Assembly: GCF_014697415.1 (NCBI RefSeq)
Contig: NZ_JACJRT010000008.1
Coordinates: forward strand, 310,001-374,000
DNA: 64,000 nt
Direction of reading: 5' to 3'
From: Cyanobium sp. FACHB-13342
GTDB lineage: Bacteria; Cyanobacteriota; Cyanobacteriia; PCC-6307; Cyanobiaceae
Below are positions 18,764 through 25,435 of this stretch, one piece after another (the stretch's first letter is position 1; every line of letters begins with the position of its first letter). The notes below the pieces were generated by a model, which was given only the letters and a program-made list of their open reading frames with translations, did no database searches and was not told where the DNA came from. The translations under genes were made by a program, and so were the position numbers.

Positions 18764-19904
18764 GCAGACGGTCTACGTTTTCAGGCTGGCTGTTGTACCC
18801 CATCAGGCCAATCCGCCACACCTTGCCGGCCAGGGCACCGAGACCACCGCCCACCTCGATCCCATGGGTGTTGAGCAGATGCAGGGTGAAGGCCTTGCCA
18901 TCCACTCCCGCGGGGATCCGAACCGTGGTGAGGGTGGGAAGCCGGAGATGCTCCGGAGCATGGAGTTCCAGACCCAGCCGCTCCAGGCCAGCCCAGAGGC
19001 GTTCCGCATTGCGGCGATGGCGAGCCCAGGCCTCATCCAGTCCCTCCTCGGCCAACAGCCGCAGGGCTTCGCGCATGCCGAAATTCATGTTCACCGGAGC
19101 GGTGTGGTGGTACACCCGATCGCTGCCCCAGTACTGGTTCAACAGGGTGACATCGAGGTACCAATTCGGCACCTTGCCTTGGCGAGCCATCATTTTGGCC
19201 TCGGCCCGGGGCCCCATGGTGAAGGGGCCAAGCCCTGGAGGGCAGCTCAGACCTTTCTGACTGCAGCTGTAGGCCAGATCCACCTTCCAGGCGTCGAGAT
19301 AAAGGGGCACGGCGCCAAGGGACGTGACCGTGTCGAGCAGCAACAGGCAGTCGTACTGCCGGCAGAGATCCCCGATGCCCTCCATGGGTTGGCAGATGCC
19401 GGTGGACGTTTCGGCGTGGACAATCGCCAGGATCTTGGGCCGATGGGTGGCCACGGCCTCCTCCAACTCGGCCAGGCTGAAGGCTTCGCCCCAGGGCTTT
19501 TCGATCGTGACGACATTGGCCCGGTAACGGCCAGCCATGTCAGCCAGGCGCAGACCGAAATAGCCCTTCACCGCCACCAGCACGGTGTCGCCGGGCTCGA
19601 TGGTGTTGGCCAGGGTGGCTTCCATGGCGGCACTCCCGGTGCCGCTCATCGGAATGGTGAGGCGATTGTCCGTCTGCCAGGCATAGCGGAGCAGCTCCTG
19701 GACCTCCCCCATCAGCTCGACATAGAGGGGATCGAGGTGACCGATCGGCGTGCGGGCCAGGGCCTGCAGAACGGTGGGATGGGCATTGGAGGGCCCTGGC
19801 CCCAGCAGGAGACGGTCGGGGGTGGCGATCGGACCCAGCGTGCGGCGATGGGCGGAATTGACGGGGGGCAGCACGGGGAGAGAAGCCAAAGCCTGGAGGG
19901 ACAT
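18696..19904 (-). CDS. Class V aminotransferase, serine/alanine-glyoxylate type
   Basis: This PLP aminotransferase of the AGT/SGAT family is likely active in photorespiratory glyoxylate metabolism. The 402 aa include LLLGPGPSNAHPTVL (about 33-47), SGTGSAAMEA (cofactor phosphate loop), HAETSTGI, LLLDTVTSLGAVPL, and the PLP lysine in YSCSQKGLSCPPGLG. It resembles the cyanobacterial alanine/serine-glyoxylate enzymes. It is a single minus-strand gene following apcF, with 36 bases between that hold an inverted repeat. Confidence 0.9.
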   Translation of the reverse strand: MSLQALASLPVLPPVNSAHRRTLGPIATPDRLLLGPGPSNAHPTVLQALARTPIGHLDPLYVELMGEVQELLRYAWQTDNRLTIPMSGTGSAAMEATLANTIEPGDTVLVAVKGYFGLRLADMAGRYRANVVTIEKPWGEAFSLAELEEAVATHRPKILAIVHAETSTGICQPMEGIGDLCRQYDCLLLLDTVTSLGAVPLYLDAWKVDLAYSCSQKGLSCPPGLGPFTMGPRAEAKMMARQGKVPNWYLDVTLLNQYWGSDRVYHHTAPVNMNFGMREALRLLAEEGLDEAWARHRRNAERLWAGLERLGLELHAPEHLRLPTLTTVRIPAGVDGKAFTLHLLNTHGIEVGGGLGALAGKVWRIGLMGYNSQPENVDRLLNLFESELPAFHPAASPAAVAV

Positions 19905-19925
19905 GCAATCGTTTGGAGCCTAAAC

Positions 19926-19942
19926 AGCAGCCAGGGGCTGCT
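19926..19942 (-). terminator. Possible weak terminator after apcF
   Basis: A perfect 7-bp inverted repeat (AGCAGCC/GGCTGCT, 3-base loop) sits at the apcF stop codon and is followed on the minus strand by a short GTTTAG. The T-run is poor, so partial read-through into the aminotransferase gene is possible. Confidence 0.35.
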
Positions 19943-20459
19943 ATCGGGCGCGCACGTTGGTGGCTCCAAGCCCCCTGCAGAGATGCTCAAAGGGCACCCG
20001 CACCACTGCGGTGGCGGTCACGCCGGCGTCCAGGAGCATCTCGCACACCACATCGGCGAGCAGGGCGATGCTGCGCACCGTGGGACCCGTGGGCACCCCG
20101 AGGCTCTTGTAGGTGTCGTCGAGCCCATTCAGAACGCGCTCATTGAGAATGGTGGCGTCGTCAGCAATGAGCGCATAGCTGGCGTAACGCAGGAAGTAAT
20201 CCATATCCCGCAGGCAGGCCGACAGCCGCCGGGTGGTGTAGGCGTTGCCTCCGGGCAGGATCAATTCGGGATCGGCCAGCCAGAGGCGCTGGGCGGCCTC
20301 GCGCACGATCGCGGCGGCCTCGCGGTTGATCAGCTCCACCGCCGCCAGACGCACTTCAGCCTCGGAGTAGTAGGCGGAGATCCGGTCGATGGCATCCCGG
20401 TCCAGATAGCGGCCCAGCTGGTCATAACGGCCAATCAGACCGGTGATGGCATCGCGCAT
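19941..20459 (-). CDS. apcF: Allophycocyanin beta-18 subunit
   Basis: ApcF is a minor phycobilisome-core subunit that replaces one ApcB in the trimers with the linker ApcE and helps pass energy to photosystem II. The ATG at 20457-20459 gives 172 aa starting MRDAITGLIGRYDQ. The chromophore Cys lies in RRLSACLRDMDYFLRYASY, with the downstream LNGLDDTYKSLGVPTGPTVR. The beginning and the ACLRDMDYFLRYASYAL stretch fit ApcF better than ApcB. The longer frame to 20486 adds nine residues and is less likely. It is divergent from glnA across a 208-base region. Confidence 0.93.
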   Translation of the reverse strand: MRDAITGLIGRYDQLGRYLDRDAIDRISAYYSEAEVRLAAVELINREAAAIVREAAQRLWLADPELILPGGNAYTTRRLSACLRDMDYFLRYASYALIADDATILNERVLNGLDDTYKSLGVPTGPTVRSIALLADVVCEMLLDAGVTATAVVRVPFEHLCRGLGATNVRAR

Positions 20460-20581
20460 GGCGGAATTGAATCGACGCACCTGCACCGGAAGCTAGCACT
20501 CACATTCGGCCAGATCCCAGGCCAGGGGCGCGTTTTGGGCAAAGTGACAGAAACGGTTACGCAAGCAGCACCCCGCGATTG

Positions 20582-20623
20582 GTAGCAAGCGCTACATAGT
20601 GGTGCCCCGGCGATCCGTACCGT
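20582..20623 (+). promoter_or_regulatory. NtcA-activated promoter of glnA
   Basis: A perfect GTA-N8-TAC box (20582-20595) is followed after exactly 22 bases by TACCGT (20618-20623), which fits the TAN3T -10 element. This is the canonical class II NtcA promoter layout of cyanobacterial nitrogen-assimilation genes. Transcription should begin near 20630, leaving a leader of about 38 bases before the glnA ATG. Confidence 0.92.
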
Positions 20624-20667
20624 CCCGCCACGCCGCATTCCGGCCGGCACCCACCCCTCTGTTCGTC

Positions 20668-22086
20668 ATGGCCAAAACAGCCCAGGACGTCCTCCGTCAG
20701 ATCAAAGACGAAGGCATTGAGCTGATCGACCTCAAGTTCGTTGATCTCCATGGCAAGTGGCAGCACCTCACCGTCTGCAACGATCTGATCGACGAAGCCG
20801 CCTTCACCGATGGCGTGGCCTTTGACGGCTCCTCAATCCGCGGCTGGAAGGCCATCAATGAATCGGATATGGCCATGGTGCCGGATCCGAACACGGCCTG
20901 GATTGATCCGTTTTACAGCCACAAAACCCTCAGCCTGATCTGCTCGATTCAGGAGCCCCGCAGTGGCCAGCCCTACGCCCGCTGCCCCCGTGCCCTGGCC
21001 CAGAAGGCCCTCAACTATCTCGGCTCCACCGGCATCGCCGACACGGCCTACTTCGGTCCGGAGCCCGAGTTTTTCGTGTTTGACGATGTGCGCTACACCT
21101 CGGGCAGTGGCAGCAGCTTCTACAGCGTCGACTCGATCGAAGCCCCCTGGAACACGGCCCGCCTCGAGGAGGGCGGCAACCTGGCCTACAAGATCCAGCT
21201 GAAGGAGGGCTACTTCCCGGTTGCCCCCAACGACACGCTGCAGGACATGCGCACCGAGATGCTGCTCACCATGGGCAGCTTGGGGGTGCCGATTGAAAAG
21301 CAGCACCACGAAGTGGCCACGGCCCAGCACGAGCTGGGGATCAAGTTTGCCGAGCTGATCAGCGCAGCCGACAACGTGATGATTTACAAGTACGTGGTGC
21401 GCAACGTGGCGCGGAAGTACGGCAAGACGGCCACGTTCATGCCCAAGCCCGTGTTCGCCGACAATGGCAGTGGCATGCACGTGCACCAAAGCCTCTGGAA
21501 GGGTGGCAACCCCCTGTTCTTCGGCGAAGGCACCTACGCCAACCTCTCTCAGACAGCCCGCTGGTACATCGGCGGCCTGCTCAAGCACGCCCCCAGCTTC
21601 CTGGCCTTCACCAACCCCACCACCAACAGCTACAAGCGTTTGGTGCCGGGCTTTGAGGCTCCCGTGAACCTGGTGTACTCCCAGGGCAACCGTTCGGCCG
21701 CCGTGCGCATCCCCCTCACCGGCCCCAGTCCCAAGGCCAAGCGACTGGAGTTCCGCTCCGGCGATGCCCTCTCCAATCCCTATCTGGGCTTTGCCGCCAT
21801 GCTCATGGCCGGCATCGACGGCATCAAGAATCAGATCGATCCGGGCGATGGCACGGACGTCGACCTGTTTGAGCTCTCGGCTGAGGAGCTCGCCAAGATC
21901 TCCACAGTGCCCGCTTCCCTCAACGGCGCCCTCGAAGCCCTCGATGCCGACAAGGACTACCTGCTGGCCGGTGGCGTCTTCACCGAAGACTTCATCAACA
22001 ACTGGATCGCCCTCAAATACGAGGAGGTGCAGCAGCTGCGCCAGCGGCCCCACCCCCACGAGTACGTGATGTACTACGACGCCTGA
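20668..22086 (+). CDS. glnA: Glutamine synthetase type I
   Basis: GlnA makes glutamine from glutamate, ammonia and ATP, the entry point of ammonium in cyanobacteria. From the ATG at 20668 the protein is 472 aa, standard for dodecameric GSI. It has the beta-grasp start [17 protein letters not shown], the metal/ATP region [19 protein letters not shown] (about 265-285), and the NRSAAVRIP loop. The open frame reaches back to 20599, through the predicted transcription start, so the shorter start is right. The gene is monocistronic: NtcA promoter upstream, strong terminator downstream. Confidence 0.98.
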
Positions 22087-22128
22087 TCCCAAGGCCCGCT
22101 CAGGACCCGTAGTCCGATGACACAGCCC

Positions 22129-22156
22129 AAGCCCTGGTTAACGCCAGGGCTTTTTT
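22129..22156 (+). terminator. Rho-independent terminator of glnA
   Basis: A perfect 9-bp stem (AAGCCCTGG 22129-22137 / CCAGGGCTT 22144-22152) with a 6-base loop runs into a T-run ending at 22156, 42 bases after the glnA stop. Confidence 0.92.
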
Positions 22157-22195
22157 GTGCCTGGCCTACGACAACCAAAGTCAGAACAACGGGGC

Positions 22196-22426
22196 TCAGC
22201 GGTGGCGCAGTTGGGCAATGGCGCTGTCGTGCAGGTGCTTCTCGCGAGCCTGGCGCCTGGCCCAGGCCTCCATCTGGTGCACCACATCGCCGGCGGGGTT
22301 GAGGTCGTGGTGCTGGGTGATCTGGGCCAGCTCGGCGGCATGCAGGCGCGCGGCGTGGGCGTGTTGGCGGCTCCAGGTCTGAAATTCGGGATCGGGAGCC
22401 AGCGGCTGAAAACGGGAGTCGTCCAT
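22196..22426 (-). CDS. Small hypothetical protein beside glnA, 76 aa
   Basis: An AGGAGG ribosome-binding site lies seven bases before the ATG at 22424-22426. The product is soluble and helical, rich in His, Gln, Ala and Arg (for example SRQHAHAARLHAAEL and MEAWARRQAREKHL), with no membrane segment or recognisable domain. It faces glnA tail to tail, with the glnA terminator between. A perfect NtcA-type box lies 42-55 bases before its start codon, where NtcA would cover the core promoter. A size like the glutamine-synthetase inactivating factors is suggestive, but I see no sequence match to IF7 or IF17. Confidence 0.6.
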   Translation of the reverse strand: MDDSRFQPLAPDPEFQTWSRQHAHAARLHAAELAQITQHHDLNPAGDVVHQMEAWARRQAREKHLHDSAIAQLRHR

Positions 22427-22467
22427 GGAGCCTCCTGGATCTGTGGGATCAGCATGGGTCCATTTCT

Positions 22468-22481
22468 GTAGCGGTTGCTAC
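22468..22481. promoter_or_regulatory. Second perfect NtcA-type box (GTA-N8-TAC)
   Basis: The palindromic half-sites GTA (22468-22470) and TAC (22479-22481) flank eight bases. On the plus strand a weak -10 candidate (GACGTT, 22503-22508) follows after 21 bases, 55 bases before the methyltransferase start, so activation of that gene is possible. On the minus strand the box lies only 42 bases before the small 76-aa gene, too near for activation but well placed for repression. Confidence 0.6.
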
Positions 22482-22562
22482 GAAAGCGGCCAAGCTTCAC
22501 AGGACGTTGCAGGCGCGGTCGCCAGCCAGATCCGCTGAAATGGGGGTCGCCTCGCTCGACCC

Positions 22563-23621
22563 ATGCCTGATCAGCTCACCAAGCTGGCTTACCAAACCCT
22601 GCAGCAGGGCAAGGCTTTGCTGGGGGTCACCCACAAGGAAGTCAGCACGCGGCTGATGGGCCTGCTGGCACCCGAAGGCAGCCCCAAGACGGTGCCGGTA
22701 CCGCCGGAATTGCTGGGCCGGCTGAAGCAGGCCATGGATGCCCTGCATGAGCGCGACTGGCAGGAGGCCGAACAGGGGCTCTATCCGGCATCGCTGTTGT
22801 TTGATGCCCCCTGGCTCGATTGGGCCAGCCGCTATCCCCTGGTTTGGCTGGATATGCCCAGCACCTGGAGCCGGCGCATGGAGCGCAACGTGCGCGACCT
22901 GCCGCGCAGCATCGATCCCGAGGACTTCCCCGACTACTACCTCCAGAATTTCCATCACCAGACCGACGGCTACCTGAGCGACCACTCCGCCGCCCTCTAC
23001 GACCTGCAGGTCGAAATTCTGTTCAACGGCACAGCCGATCCGATGCGGCGCCGGGTGCTGGCTCCGCTCCTACGGGGTGTCCGGGCCTTCCCGGACCGCC
23101 CGGCGGGGCAGATCCGGGTGCTGGATGTGGCCACAGGCACCGGCCGCACCCTGCGTCAGATCCGCGGCGCCCTGCCCAAGGCCCAACTGTTTGGCCTCGA
23201 TCTCTCCAGCGCCTATCTGCGTCAGGCCAACAAATGGCTCAGTCAGTTGCCGGGGGAGCTGCCCCAGCTGGTGCAGGGGAATGGGGAGTGCATGCCCTTT
23301 GCCGAGGGCACATTCCAGGGGCTCACCTGCGTCTTCCTGTTCCATGAACTGCCCGGTGAGGCCCGCCAAAACGTGCTGCAGGACGCGTTCCGGGTGCTGG
23401 AACCGGGTGGGGTCGTGGTGCTGGCCGACTCCGTGCAGCTGGCCGATTCACCCCAGTTCAGCGCCGTGATGGAAAACTTCCGGCGGGTGTTCCACGAGCC
23501 CTACTACCGCGACTACATCAGCGACGACATCGAAGGGCGACTGCGCCGTTGCGGGTTTGAGGGAATCACCGCCGAGACCCATTTCATGACCCGGGTCTGG
23601 ACGGCGCGCAAACCCCGCTAA
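22563..23621 (+). CDS. Class I SAM-dependent methyltransferase
   Basis: The 352-aa protein has a cyanobacterial N-terminal region of about 175 residues (with YPLVWLDMPSTWSRRMERN) followed by a Rossmann methyltransferase: motif I VLDVATGTGRTL (near 185), acidic motif II LFGLDLSSAYL, and motif III/post-I FRVLEPGGVVVLADSVQL. It resembles UbiE/COQ5-like enzymes but the acceptor is unknown. The gene is preceded by an NtcA-type box and converges with a small minus-strand gene, the stops overlapping by four bases. Confidence 0.83.
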   Translation: MPDQLTKLAYQTLQQGKALLGVTHKEVSTRLMGLLAPEGSPKTVPVPPELLGRLKQAMDALHERDWQEAEQGLYPASLLFDAPWLDWASRYPLVWLDMPSTWSRRMERNVRDLPRSIDPEDFPDYYLQNFHHQTDGYLSDHSAALYDLQVEILFNGTADPMRRRVLAPLLRGVRAFPDRPAGQIRVLDVATGTGRTLRQIRGALPKAQLFGLDLSSAYLRQANKWLSQLPGELPQLVQGNGECMPFAEGTFQGLTCVFLFHELPGEARQNVLQDAFRVLEPGGVVVLADSVQLADSPQFSAVMENFRRVFHEPYYRDYISDDIEGRLRRCGFEGITAETHFMTRVWTARKPR

Positions 23622-23887
23622 CGCTTCAGGCACCAGGCCAGCAGCAGACCGGCGGTGGCCCAACGCAGCCCCCGCCAAAACAGCACGTCCTGGCGATGCG
23701 GTGGGGCCAGCTCGGGCGGCAGGGGATCGAGCAGCCGTTGGGTCAACGCCAGCCGCTGCTGCTGTCGCCGCAGGGTCACCCCCGAACTGTTGGCCGTCAG
23801 GGAGGCCTGGGTGAGCAGGCCATCCAGCAGGTGCAGGAGCCGGATCGGCTGTCGTACGGCATGGTGGCCGAGGGGTCTCAACGGCAT
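23618..23887 (-). CDS. Small hypothetical protein with C-terminal membrane helix, 89 aa
   Basis: No named domain is visible. The N-terminal 65 residues are Leu/Gln/Arg-rich and probably helical; the last 20 (FWRGLRWATAGLLLAWCLKR) form a likely tail anchor. Its ATG overlaps head to head with the ATG of the plus-strand gene at 23886, so one of the two starts may be annotated too far upstream. The stop overlaps the methyltransferase stop. I give it moderate support from composition and packing only. Confidence 0.5.
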   Translation of the reverse strand: MPLRPLGHHAVRQPIRLLHLLDGLLTQASLTANSSGVTLRRQQQRLALTQRLLDPLPPELAPPHRQDVLFWRGLRWATAGLLLAWCLKR

Positions 23888-24275
23888 GGCCCGCTCCCAG
23901 CGTCAGGGGTGTGGCATCAGGATGGGGCCTTCCTCCGGCAAACGTCCAGTGTCCACGCCCCTGGCAAAGCCCCAACGCAGCTGGCCGGAGGGCTCCCTGG
24001 AGCAGGCCGTGGCTCTGCAGCGGCTCCTGGCCATCGGCGATCGCGACTGGCATGCCCTCAAGGCCCAACGTTCGCGCCGAGGTGCGGAACAGCTGGCTGC
24101 GGCGCTGGTGGTGTTGCTCAGCGGGGACGATCCCGGGGCTCCCCAGCCCAGCCCAGCTCGGCTTGAGGCGATCGCCCTGGTGGAACATGGCCTGGGCTGG
24201 CTCCGGGCTGAGGTCAGCGACCCCGGTTGCCCCAGCCACCGGCCAGCGACAACAATTCCGCCCGCTGACGGCTGA
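23886..24275 (+). CDS. Conserved cyanobacterial hypothetical protein (DUF6439-like)
   Basis: The convincing part is residues 38-115 (SLEQAVALQRLLAIGDRDWH, then KAQRSRRGAEQLAAALVVLL and EAIALVEHGLGWLRAEVSDP), a short helical family I recall in picocyanobacteria as DUF6439; the family name is from memory. The ATG at 23886 gives 129 aa, but a GTG at 23949 would start closer to the conserved part and avoid the head-to-head overlap with the minus-strand gene. The 3' end overlaps the convergent ATPase gene by 62 bases. Confidence 0.6.
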   Translation: MARSQRQGCGIRMGPSSGKRPVSTPLAKPQRSWPEGSLEQAVALQRLLAIGDRDWHALKAQRSRRGAEQLAAALVVLLSGDDPGAPQPSPARLEAIALVEHGLGWLRAEVSDPGCPSHRPATTIPPADG

Positions 24276-24651
24276 CCGCTAATTGCAGGCGATTGCCCCG
24301 TTGGCTCCAGCGCACGTCGTCAAAACAGTGGTGAATCAGAAACAGGCCTCGGCCGCTGGCGGCATCCAGCTGTTCGGGCAGGGTTGTGGTGCGGGATGCA
24401 GCGGGGAGGCCAGGCCCCTCATCCTGCACCTGCCACACCAGCCAACGGGGCGTTTCAATCCGACGCACCCGCAGACACTTGGACGGATCGCAATCGTTGC
24501 CATGGCGCACGGCATTCACCAGGGCCTCCTGCAGGCCCAGCTGCACCTGGCTCTGCAGCTGCAAACTGCGCACGGGCTCGATCAGCAACTCCAGCAGCGG
24601 CGCCAGCTGCAGGGTGGAGGGGGTGATGAAATCCGACCAGCGCAGCGCCAT
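24214..24651 (-). CDS. RsbW-like anti-sigma-type ATPase domain protein
   Basis: This 145-aa protein is a stand-alone GHKL/HATPase_c_2 domain. It has the N-box in QEALVNAVRHGN (about 55-66), the G1-like QDEGPGLP (about 90-97) and the G2-like GRGLFLIHHCFD (about 115-126). Such proteins are serine kinases or anti-sigma factors that act with STAS antagonists in partner switching. The ATG at 24649-24651 gives a normal start. The upstream GUN4 gene ends 55 bases away on the same strand, so they may be co-transcribed. A STAS protein is encoded separately at 55450-55794. Confidence 0.83.
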   Translation of the reverse strand: MALRWSDFITPSTLQLAPLLELLIEPVRSLQLQSQVQLGLQEALVNAVRHGNDCDPSKCLRVRRIETPRWLVWQVQDEGPGLPAASRTTTLPEQLDAASGRGLFLIHHCFDDVRWSQRGNRLQLAVSRQRAELLSLAGGWGNRGR

Positions 24652-24706
24652 TCGGCCCGGATCCGCAGGGTCCGGTTTGACCCTACGCCGTGGCCGGCCC
24701 CCTGAC

Positions 24707-25435
24707 TCAGGCCTTGATGCGCTGTTGCAGAGCCGGATGGCGCAGCAGGGCATCCATCAGACGAACGCCGCGCAACTGATTCACCAGCGGCATGTGACCC
24801 TCCGGGGCGTCGATCGACCACTGGAAGGAGCCTGGGTAGCGGGTCCACAGGCCCCCATCCTTCCAGCCCAACTTGGGCCACAGCAGCTCCCAGCGGCCGT
24901 TGCAGCTGGCCAGCAAGGTTCCCTGCACGGAAAAGCCGAACCGGCCTTGGGAGTAACACACCCACAGCCGATCGAGACTGTCGAGATCGGCCGAGGGCAT
25001 GGGCGGCACCTCGCTGTAATAGACGTAGCCGCGTCGCACGGCGTCGGCCCCCGCCAGCTCCCGCAGCAGGGCACTGGTGAGCCGATCGGCCTCCTCAAAG
25101 CGCTGGGCCATCAGGGCCCGCTCCAGCGGGGCGTAGTCGAGACCACAGGCCGACACGGTGGCCAGCCAGCCGTCGGGGTAGCGGCTGAGAAAGTCGGCCC
25201 GCAACCCATCCCCCTCCTCCAGCAGCATCTGGATCAGGAAGCCTGCGGCCCAGTCATCGCCGGTGGCATCCAGGCCTGCGAGATGGTCCGCAATCAGGGG
25301 CCGCAGTTCCTGGCGACGGGTCTGCAGGGTGGCAACCAGGGAACGGCGTTGACGGCCGTTGGCGGCCTGGAAGCGCTCCAGCAGGGCGCCTGGACTGGCG
25401 GTAGCGGTGGCGGTGACCGGAGGTCCGGAAAGCAT
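24707..25435 (-). CDS. GUN4-domain protein
   Basis: GUN4 binds protoporphyrin IX and Mg-protoporphyrin and stimulates Mg-chelatase in chlorophyll synthesis. The 242-aa product has an N-terminal helical bundle (about 15-95) as in Synechocystis Gun4, then the GUN4 core: DYAPLERALMAQRFEEADRL, LDRLWVCYSQGRFGFSVQ (about 155-172) and PGSFQWSIDAPEGHMPL. The ATG at 25433-25435 is preferred to the one at 25477. It may be the genuine Gun4 or one of the paralogous GUN4-domain proteins that cyanobacteria carry. Confidence 0.88.
   Translation of the reverse strand: MLSGPPVTATATASPGALLERFQAANGRQRRSLVATLQTRRQELRPLIADHLAGLDATGDDWAAGFLIQMLLEEGDGLRADFLSRYPDGWLATVSACGLDYAPLERALMAQRFEEADRLTSALLRELAGADAVRRGYVYYSEVPPMPSADLDSLDRLWVCYSQGRFGFSVQGTLLASCNGRWELLWPKLGWKDGGLWTRYPGSFQWSIDAPEGHMPLVNQLRGVRLMDALLRHPALQQRIKA

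What the first reader, a model, noticed from the sequence alone, without database searches (positions are those of the whole stretch)
22428..22562. Second perfect NtcA box next to glnA, facing a small unknown gene and a methyltransferase
GTA-N8-TAC at 22468-22481 is as good as the glnA site (20582-20595) 1.9 kb away. It can serve two genes: on the plus strand spacing to a weak -10 (GACGTT) allows activation of the methyltransferase; on the minus strand it sits 42-55 bases before a 76-aa gene with a strong AGGAGG site, fitting repression. NtcA represses genes for small glutamine-synthetase inactivating factors (gifA/gifB) in other cyanobacteria. A small unknown protein beside glnA under an NtcA site could be an analogue, though it has no visible IF7/IF17 similarity.
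Basis: partly seen in the sequence, partly recalled or inferred. Interest (0 to 1): 0.62.

Follow-up and report, generated by a model that had tools for sequence, protein, structure and literature searches.

The report
Nitrogen switch beside glutamine synthetase gene
Next to the glutamine synthetase gene of a small cyanobacterium, one binding site for the nitrogen regulator NtcA lies between two diverging genes, placed to switch off a little-known family of small proteins when nitrogen is scarce; these proteins are candidates for the missing brake on nitrogen assimilation in this group.

Summary
In detail: a perfect GTA-N8-TAC box (22468-22481) lies between a 76-aa gene (22196-22426, minus) and a methyltransferase gene. 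It is not chance. The small gene belongs to an unnamed family with matches in 104 of 400 picocyanobacterial genomes. 82 of 102 distinct loci carry a perfect box 30-110 nt before its start, against 1.7 in shuffles. Methyltransferase loci without the small gene mostly lack the box: 3 of 90 have it, two of them with small-gene remnants by my reading. On the small-gene side the box runs into a conserved -10-like CAGAAT, a repression geometry resembling gifA/gifB/pirA. On the methyltransferase side a weak -10 sits at the NtcA-activation spacing in 35 of 52 clusters, so the box is probably a two-way switch. The protein is a helix repeat under purifying selection, not a homologue of IF7/IF17; no convincing IF7-type factor was found in this family. 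Best reading: an NtcA-repressed, nitrogen-excess regulator acting on glutamine synthetase or PII. The target is inferred, not shown. The window's own copy is near-neutral and has a degenerate -10 (CAGAAA).

The parts
22468..22481 (.). Perfect NtcA box GTAGCGGTTGCTAC, shared by two divergent genes
   Evidence: perfect box 30-110 nt before the small gene in 82 of 102 distinct loci
22196..22426 (-). Small gene, 76 aa, two-helix repeat protein, unnamed picocyanobacterial family
   Evidence: no Pfam match above cut-off and no NCBIfam match
22463..22468 (-). Predicted -10 of the small gene, fused to the box; CAGAAA here, consensus CAGAAT
   Evidence: read; consensus from 60 cluster representatives; window copy departs at the last base
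22455..22456 (-). Predicted transcription start of the small gene (leader about 29-30 nt)
   Evidence: inference from the conserved purine 12 nt after the box; the window has C at +12 and A at +13
22431..22436 (-). Shine-Dalgarno-like AGGAGG of the small gene
   Evidence: sequence
22503..22508 (+). Weak -10 GACGTT, 21 nt after the box, for a possible NtcA-activated start facing the methyltransferase
   Evidence: an xANNNT hexamer at N20-23 in 35 of 52 clusters
22536..22541 (+). TGAAAT, conserved element (TG[AG]AAT) before the methyltransferase, possibly its own -10
   Evidence: found in 30 of 31 distinct methyltransferase loci with a box and 54 of 98 without
22563..23621 (+). SAM-dependent methyltransferase, 352 aa, orthologues widespread in the family
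20668..22086 (+). glnA, type I glutamine synthetase, convergent with the small gene
   Evidence: TIGR00653
20582..20595 (+). NtcA box of glnA with TACCGT 22 nt downstream (activation geometry)
22129..22152 (+). Terminator-like hairpin between glnA and the small gene

Best explanation
The box is a two-way nitrogen switch. When nitrogen is scarce, 2-oxoglutarate-bound NtcA sits on it, covers the -10 of the minus-strand small gene and shuts it off, and probably helps RNA polymerase start towards the methyltransferase from a weak -10 about 21 nt away. When ammonium is plentiful NtcA leaves, glnA loses its activator and the small gene comes on. The small gene makes a short helical-repeat protein of a family seen so far only in picocyanobacteria that most likely damps nitrogen assimilation by binding a protein of the glutamine synthetase / PII axis, glutamine synthetase I first: a functional stand-in, not a relative, of the inactivating factors IF7/IF17 that this group appears to lack. 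Shown here: conservation of box, -10, spacing and protein. Inferred: NtcA binding, repression, expression in nitrogen excess, and the target. My step-wise estimates: NtcA represses the small gene 0.8; it also activates the methyltransferase 0.5; the target is glutamine synthetase 0.35, or any part of the glutamine synthetase / PII axis 0.55.
For: Box tied to small gene: 82 of 102 loci 30-110 nt before the start, 74 of the 82 at 43-61; shuffles mean 1.7, max 5. Methyltransferase loci: box in 28 of 35 with the small gene, 3 of 90 without, Fisher p 4e-18, not corrected for relatedness; two of the three keep a truncated or decayed small gene, by my reading. Box-to-small-gene spacing is tighter (sd 7.9) than box-to-methyltransferase element (sd 26, a figure that includes some wrongly picked elements). 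-10: AGAAT directly after the box (81-90% per base) and a purine at +12 in 60 representatives, putting the box centre near -18.5. An xANNNT hexamer is fused to the box in 43 of 52, and is at activation spacing in 0 of 52, on the small-gene side. Box kept beside the small gene where no methyltransferase was found in the DNA held (L266, L267, L271, L275). Protein: median dN/dS 0.10 in 73 non-independent pairs; tandem repeat E 1.6e-7; boxed members mostly basic, median pI 9.5. No convincing IF7/IF17 in 151 (best E 0.004, fragments) or 400 family genomes; glutamine synthetase I full length in 27 of 29 small-gene genomes checked.
Against: 20 of 102 loci lack a box in that range; two of these have a perfect box further upstream, one a one-mismatch site, and the other 17 no convincing degenerate site (one borderline). 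The window's own -10 reads CAGAAA, and its protein is near-neutral (pI 6.7, net -1), unlike basic IF7/IF17. glnA was seen within 800 nt in 60 of 102 loci and the methyltransferase next door in 84, so linkage does not single out glutamine synthetase. The glutamine synthetase of L030, a locus without the small gene, is 98% identical to the window's over the part held, and no C-terminal residue separates carriers from non-carriers cleanly. 17 of 52 clusters, WH7803 included, lack the methyltransferase-side -10, and its first T is rare. Six unlinked paralogues have no box. The comparisons are between related genomes and are not phylogenetically corrected.
Confidence: 0.5

Rival explanations
1. The small protein is an NtcA-repressed nitrogen-excess regulator but its target is PII or another enzyme, as with PirA, which competes for PII in Synechocystis.
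For: PirA is a small NtcA-repressed protein with a proximal NtcA site at -33.5 and is reported absent from marine picocyanobacteria (passages of PMC8092223). The small gene keeps its box in 33 loci where the methyltransferase is next door but glnA was not seen within 800 nt in the DNA held.
Against: No Pfam match above cut-off and no NCBIfam match for the window protein, though no PirA profile was compared directly; glnA within 800 nt in 60 of 102 loci, 11 of them without the methyltransferase next door. In several other genomes glnA lies a few kb away on the same contig (for example G072).
Confidence: 0.25
2. The small protein works with the divergent methyltransferase; the shared box sets the two genes in opposite states.
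For: Next door in 84 of 102 loci; methyltransferase-side -10 at activation spacing in 35 of 52 clusters (other windows mean 5.7, max 11; shuffles mean 9.6, max 19); weak helical phasing between box and methyltransferase element (10.5 bp: Rayleigh p 0.002 for 34 clusters, 0.02 for unique values; 11 bp similar).
Against: The box and small gene remain beside glnA where no methyltransferase was found in the DNA held (L266, L267, L271, L275), and 90 methyltransferase loci do without an intact small gene.
Confidence: 0.15
3. The box only activates the methyltransferase; the small gene is a bystander.
For: Weak -10 GACGTT at N21 in the window.
Against: 87 of 90 methyltransferase loci without the small gene lack the box; the AGAAT on the small-gene side is the best conserved stretch outside the box and stays in four loci without a methyltransferase nearby.
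Confidence: 0.06
4. The functional product is an antisense RNA: the small-gene transcript runs into glnA and lowers its expression.
For: The genes are convergent, 109 nt apart. An antisense RNA regulating glutamine synthetase is reported in a heterocyst-forming cyanobacterium (title and abstract start of PMC11288750 in the listing).
Against: Protein under purifying selection; glnA was not seen within 800 nt in 34 of the 82 loci with a box; terminator-like hairpin between the genes.
Confidence: 0.04

Closest known systems
Glutamine synthetase inactivating factors IF7/IF17 (gifA, gifB)
   Same: Small protein, NtcA site over the core promoter (reviewed as -30.5 and -7.5 for gifA and gifB, PMC6316151 passages; here predicted near -18.5), layout opposite to that of glnA
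   Different: No sequence relation (hhalign probability 0.2%; no NCBIfam match); no glutamine riboswitch in the locus; beside glnA; tandem helix repeat; window copy not basic
PirA (Ssr0692), PII-interacting regulator
   Same: Small NtcA-repressed protein of nitrogen excess, proximal site near the core promoter (-33.5, PMC8092223 passages)
   Different: No database match linking the two; one perfect site here, two motifs in the pirA promoter; PII binding unknown
NtcA-activated class II promoters (as at glnA of this window)
   Same: Same box; on the methyltransferase side an xANNNT hexamer 20-23 nt away in 35 of 52 clusters
   Different: First T of TAN3T rarely present (2 of 52 at N21); on the small-gene side no hexamer at that spacing
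DUF4278 proteins under glutamine-II riboswitches, discussed as IF-like candidates of picocyanobacteria (PMC6316151, section 13)
   Same: The own genome has one such ORF, also with an NtcA box just upstream (DUF4278 match just below Pfam's cut-off)
   Different: Different domain; the small gene has no riboswitch

Membership tests
IF7/IF17 (NCBIfam NF052599) | Sequence match to the family profile | tested here: not met
   No NCBIfam match at E<=1 for the window protein. All 10 reference IF domains in A2 match NF052599. Profile-profile A1 against A2: probability 0.2%, E 0.25.
IF7/IF17 (NCBIfam NF052599) | Conserved essential arginines at homologous positions | tested here: not met
   No alignable homology, so no homologous positions; the family has near-invariant arginines of its own (R27, R58, R74).
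IF7/IF17 (NCBIfam NF052599) | NtcA site placed for repression over the core promoter | tested here: met
   Computational only. In the window itself the -10 is CAGAAA.
IF7/IF17 (NCBIfam NF052599) | Basic small protein | tested here: inconclusive
   Boxed members median pI 9.5 (range 6.4-12.0); window copy 6.7.
IF7/IF17 (NCBIfam NF052599) | Binds and inactivates glutamine synthetase | not testable with these tools
   Needs purified proteins or mutants.
IF17 / DUF4278 with glutamine riboswitch | DUF4278 domain and glutamine aptamer in the leader | tested here: not met
   No DUF4278 match; no glutamine riboswitch at E<=1 in window 19900-24800.
PirA | Sequence family and PII binding | tested here: inconclusive
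   No Pfam match above cut-off, no NCBIfam match, but no PirA profile was compared directly; PII binding not testable.
NtcA-activated class II promoter (small-gene side) | TAN3T about 22 nt after the box | tested here: not met
   0 of 52 and 0 of 8 clusters with xANNNT at N20-23.
NtcA-activated class II promoter (methyltransferase side) | TAN3T-like -10 about 22 nt after the box | tested here: inconclusive
   35 of 52 with xANNNT at N20-23, other windows mean 5.7 max 11, shuffles mean 9.6 max 19; without a methyltransferase next door 3 of 8, within shuffle range; full TANNNT rare; GACGTT in the window.

The most novel reading that the evidence does not exclude
Picocyanobacteria, which appear to lack IF7/IF17, have their own unrelated glutamine synthetase brake: a tandem helix-repeat protein encoded tail-to-tail with glnA, switched by a bidirectional NtcA site, so that small-protein inactivation of glutamine synthetase arose at least twice.
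Probability: 0.35. Interest if true: 0.8.

Novelty: new variant of a known kind. Interest (0 to 1): 0.6.

Why it matters
A 2018 review (PMC6316151, section 13 read) calls glutamine synthetase regulation in marine picocyanobacteria unclear, and says that Prochlorococcus-like strains appear to lack full-length inactivating factors (passage). This locus offers a concrete candidate: a protein family, its promoter switch and a sequenced marine strain that carries it (Synechococcus WH7803), in a group that matters for ocean nitrogen use.

Tried and rejected
IF7/IF17 homology: rejected. The family as something wider: in 145 genomes drawn from the class, eight outside the family gave only weak hits (E 0.0018-0.0996, four with internal stops). 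Not found in phage or plasmid records by tblastn with the window protein, nor in viral contigs with A3; solved structures gave one irrelevant hit (E 0.15). PHROGs: two weak hits, each in a single member.

Co-evolution of glutamine synthetase with the small gene: among 48 carrier and 68 non-carrier C-terminal sequences the largest differences (such as position 433) do not separate the groups cleanly, and lineage was not corrected for. Structure: two helices (13-38, 44-75), pLDDT 74.5, pTM 0.32; too weak for a fold search, so none was run. RNA element: Rfam gave two sub-threshold hits, taken as chance. Sigma-70 consensus scan of 22050-22600: none; I identified no -35 on the small-gene side.

A first distance analysis between box and methyltransferase element picked some elements inside the gene; I repeated it with limits. 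Start codons were chosen by a Shine-Dalgarno/ATG score, so leader lengths are approximate. Two loci with a distant chosen start (L021, L023) have a perfect box at -172 and -136 and count as 'without'. 'glnA not adjacent' includes contig ends and short flanks (for example G123, whose glnA lies on the same contig). In one search the tally '95 of 95' counts weak methyltransferase paralogues; some genomes have only those. The control is weak: of 14 control genomes only Synechococcus elongatus rang, below the cut-off. In one search nine of 151 genomes gave IF-profile matches up to E 0.1 (best 0.004, partial, most in ORFs of other sizes), which I judged not convincing.

Full report
What is there. 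Between glnA (20668-22086, plus) and a methyltransferase gene (22563-23621, plus) lies a 76-aa gene on the minus strand (22196-22426), convergent with glnA and divergent from the methyltransferase. The perfect NtcA box GTAGCGGTTGCTAC is at 22468-22481. The glnA box at 20582-20595 has TACCGT exactly 22 nt downstream, the activation layout. The genome (2.37 Mb) has 32 perfect boxes. I looked at all 32 (29 fetched stretches and three in the window): five stand directly before glnA, glnB (PII; Pfam P-II), the small gene, a glutamine-II riboswitch followed by a DUF4278-like ORF (E 8e-5, just below Pfam's cut-off) and a glutamine-I riboswitch. Many of the others overlap long ORFs; some stand before ORFs that I did not identify (for example L319), so the count of functional boxes may be higher.

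The small gene is real and belongs to a family. A profile of 23 members (A1) matches 104 of 400 genomes of the same family, 15 of 59 genera; three of the 104 have only weak matches (E above 0.001). Among 145 genomes drawn from the class, only eight weak hits appear outside the family. Named carriers include Cyanobium, Vulcanococcus and Synechococcus WH7803 (31 loci). In 73 close, non-independent pairs the median dN/dS is 0.10 and none exceeds 0.5. The protein is a tandem repeat of about 23 residues (the two halves align with E 1.6e-7; 18 of 22 members significant on their own); one member (L058) has three copies. The prediction is two helices with modest confidence (pLDDT 74.5, pTM 0.32).

The box belongs to the small gene. 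Among 103 distinct small-gene loci, 102 have at least 110 nt upstream and 82 of these carry a perfect box starting 30-110 nt before the start codon, 74 of them at 43-61; shuffled sequences give 1.7 on average and 5 at most. Seen from the methyltransferase, 28 of 35 distinct loci with the small gene have a box, against 3 of 90 without it. Two of those three (L037, L069) show remnants of a small gene in the sequence printed, by my reading. By neighbourhood the box is present in 40 of 49 loci with both neighbours, 33 of 35 with the methyltransferase alone, 8 of 11 with glnA alone and 1 of 7 with neither; 'alone' means in the DNA held, which sometimes ends early. The six boxless loci of the last class are unlinked paralogues. 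Relatedness of the genomes is not corrected for in these counts.

How it is built. Aligning 60 representatives (less than 80% identical) on the box shows AGAAT directly after it on the small-gene side (81-90% per base) and a purine, A 65% or G 23%, at +12. Read as a -10 (CAGAAT) and a start site, this places the box centre near -18.5, over the core promoter. An xANNNT hexamer is fused to the box in 43 of 52 locus clusters with the methyltransferase next door and 5 of 8 without; none has one at the activation spacing on this side. This is the kind of layout of NtcA-repressed genes: gifA and gifB sites are reviewed at -30.5 and -7.5 (PMC6316151, passages) and the proximal pirA site at -33.5 (PMC8092223, passages). 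The window's own copy reads CAGAAA, so its -10 is degenerate.

The other side. Toward the methyltransferase an xANNNT hexamer stands 20-23 nt from the box in 35 of 52 clusters; other four-wide windows average 5.7 (max 11) and shuffles 9.6 (max 19). It is missing in 17 of 52, WH7803 among them. Where no methyltransferase is next door it occurs in 3 of 8, within the range of shuffles (mean 1.0, max 4). The methyltransferase also has a conserved TG[AG]AAT element of its own, in 30 of 31 loci with a box and 54 of 98 without, and there is a weak helical phasing between box and element. So activation of the methyltransferase is plausible but less secure than repression of the small gene.

What the protein may do. 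It is not an IF7/IF17: no NCBIfam hit, profile comparison probability 0.2%, while ten reference IF domains taken from riboswitch-linked genes all match NF052599. No convincing IF7/IF17 was found in 151 or 400 genomes of the family, in line with statements that IFs are missing in marine picocyanobacteria (PMC6316151, passage; PMC8092223, passage). Boxed members are mostly basic (median pI 9.5), boxless ones acidic (median 5.6); the window's copy is 6.7. I checked 29 small-gene genomes, chosen because glnA was not seen beside the gene in the DNA held: glutamine synthetase I is there at full length in 27, including all 22 of high quality. Glutamine synthetase sequences give no clear sign of co-evolution. 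In WH7803, glutamine synthetase activity rises in nitrogen starvation; that paper (PMC4923085: outline, section 16, part 1 of section 19 and a term search) has no occurrence of 'inactivating factor', IF7 or gifA. The most economical reading is an NtcA-repressed brake for nitrogen excess; glutamine synthetase is the first suspect because of position and the apparent lack of IFs, PII the second.

Literature. In the searches no title or abstract start named such a family; only openly licensed PubMed Central papers were searched, and an earlier NtcA-regulon paper (its subject recalled) was not held, so a prior note of the box or the gene cannot be excluded.

Noticed in passing
window 22482-22510; 60 representatives: A second conserved element upstream of the box on the small-gene strand (AAG[AT]TT then TG.AG, 15-27 nt before the box). 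It overlaps the methyltransferase-side -10 position but by eye also appears in two loci that lack the box (L018, L035); another regulator site is possible.
   Followed up: partly
L336 (G000:C17:459807-459898) and L332 (G000:C17:82862-82948): The one glutamine-II and the one glutamine-I riboswitch found in this genome both have a perfect NtcA box (GTAACAACCGCTAC) within about 20 nt upstream: possible joint NtcA and glutamine control of a DUF4278-like ORF and of a 37-aa ORF that stands before what looks like a fructose-bisphosphate aldolase gene (name recalled from the sequence).
   Followed up: partly
L231, L259, L264, L270, L272, L273: Paralogues of the small protein, not linked to glnA or the methyltransferase and without an NtcA box; function unknown.
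   Followed up: no
L050, L058, L268: A lineage whose small protein has extra repeats (three in L058) and no box, while the gene stays between glnA and the methyltransferase.
   Followed up: no
window 22530-22545: Element around TG[AG]AAT about 30-40 nt before the methyltransferase start, seen with and without the box; probably its basal promoter.
   Followed up: partly
window 22436-22462: A terminator-like hairpin on the plus strand between the small gene's start and the box; it may be a chance match.
   Followed up: no
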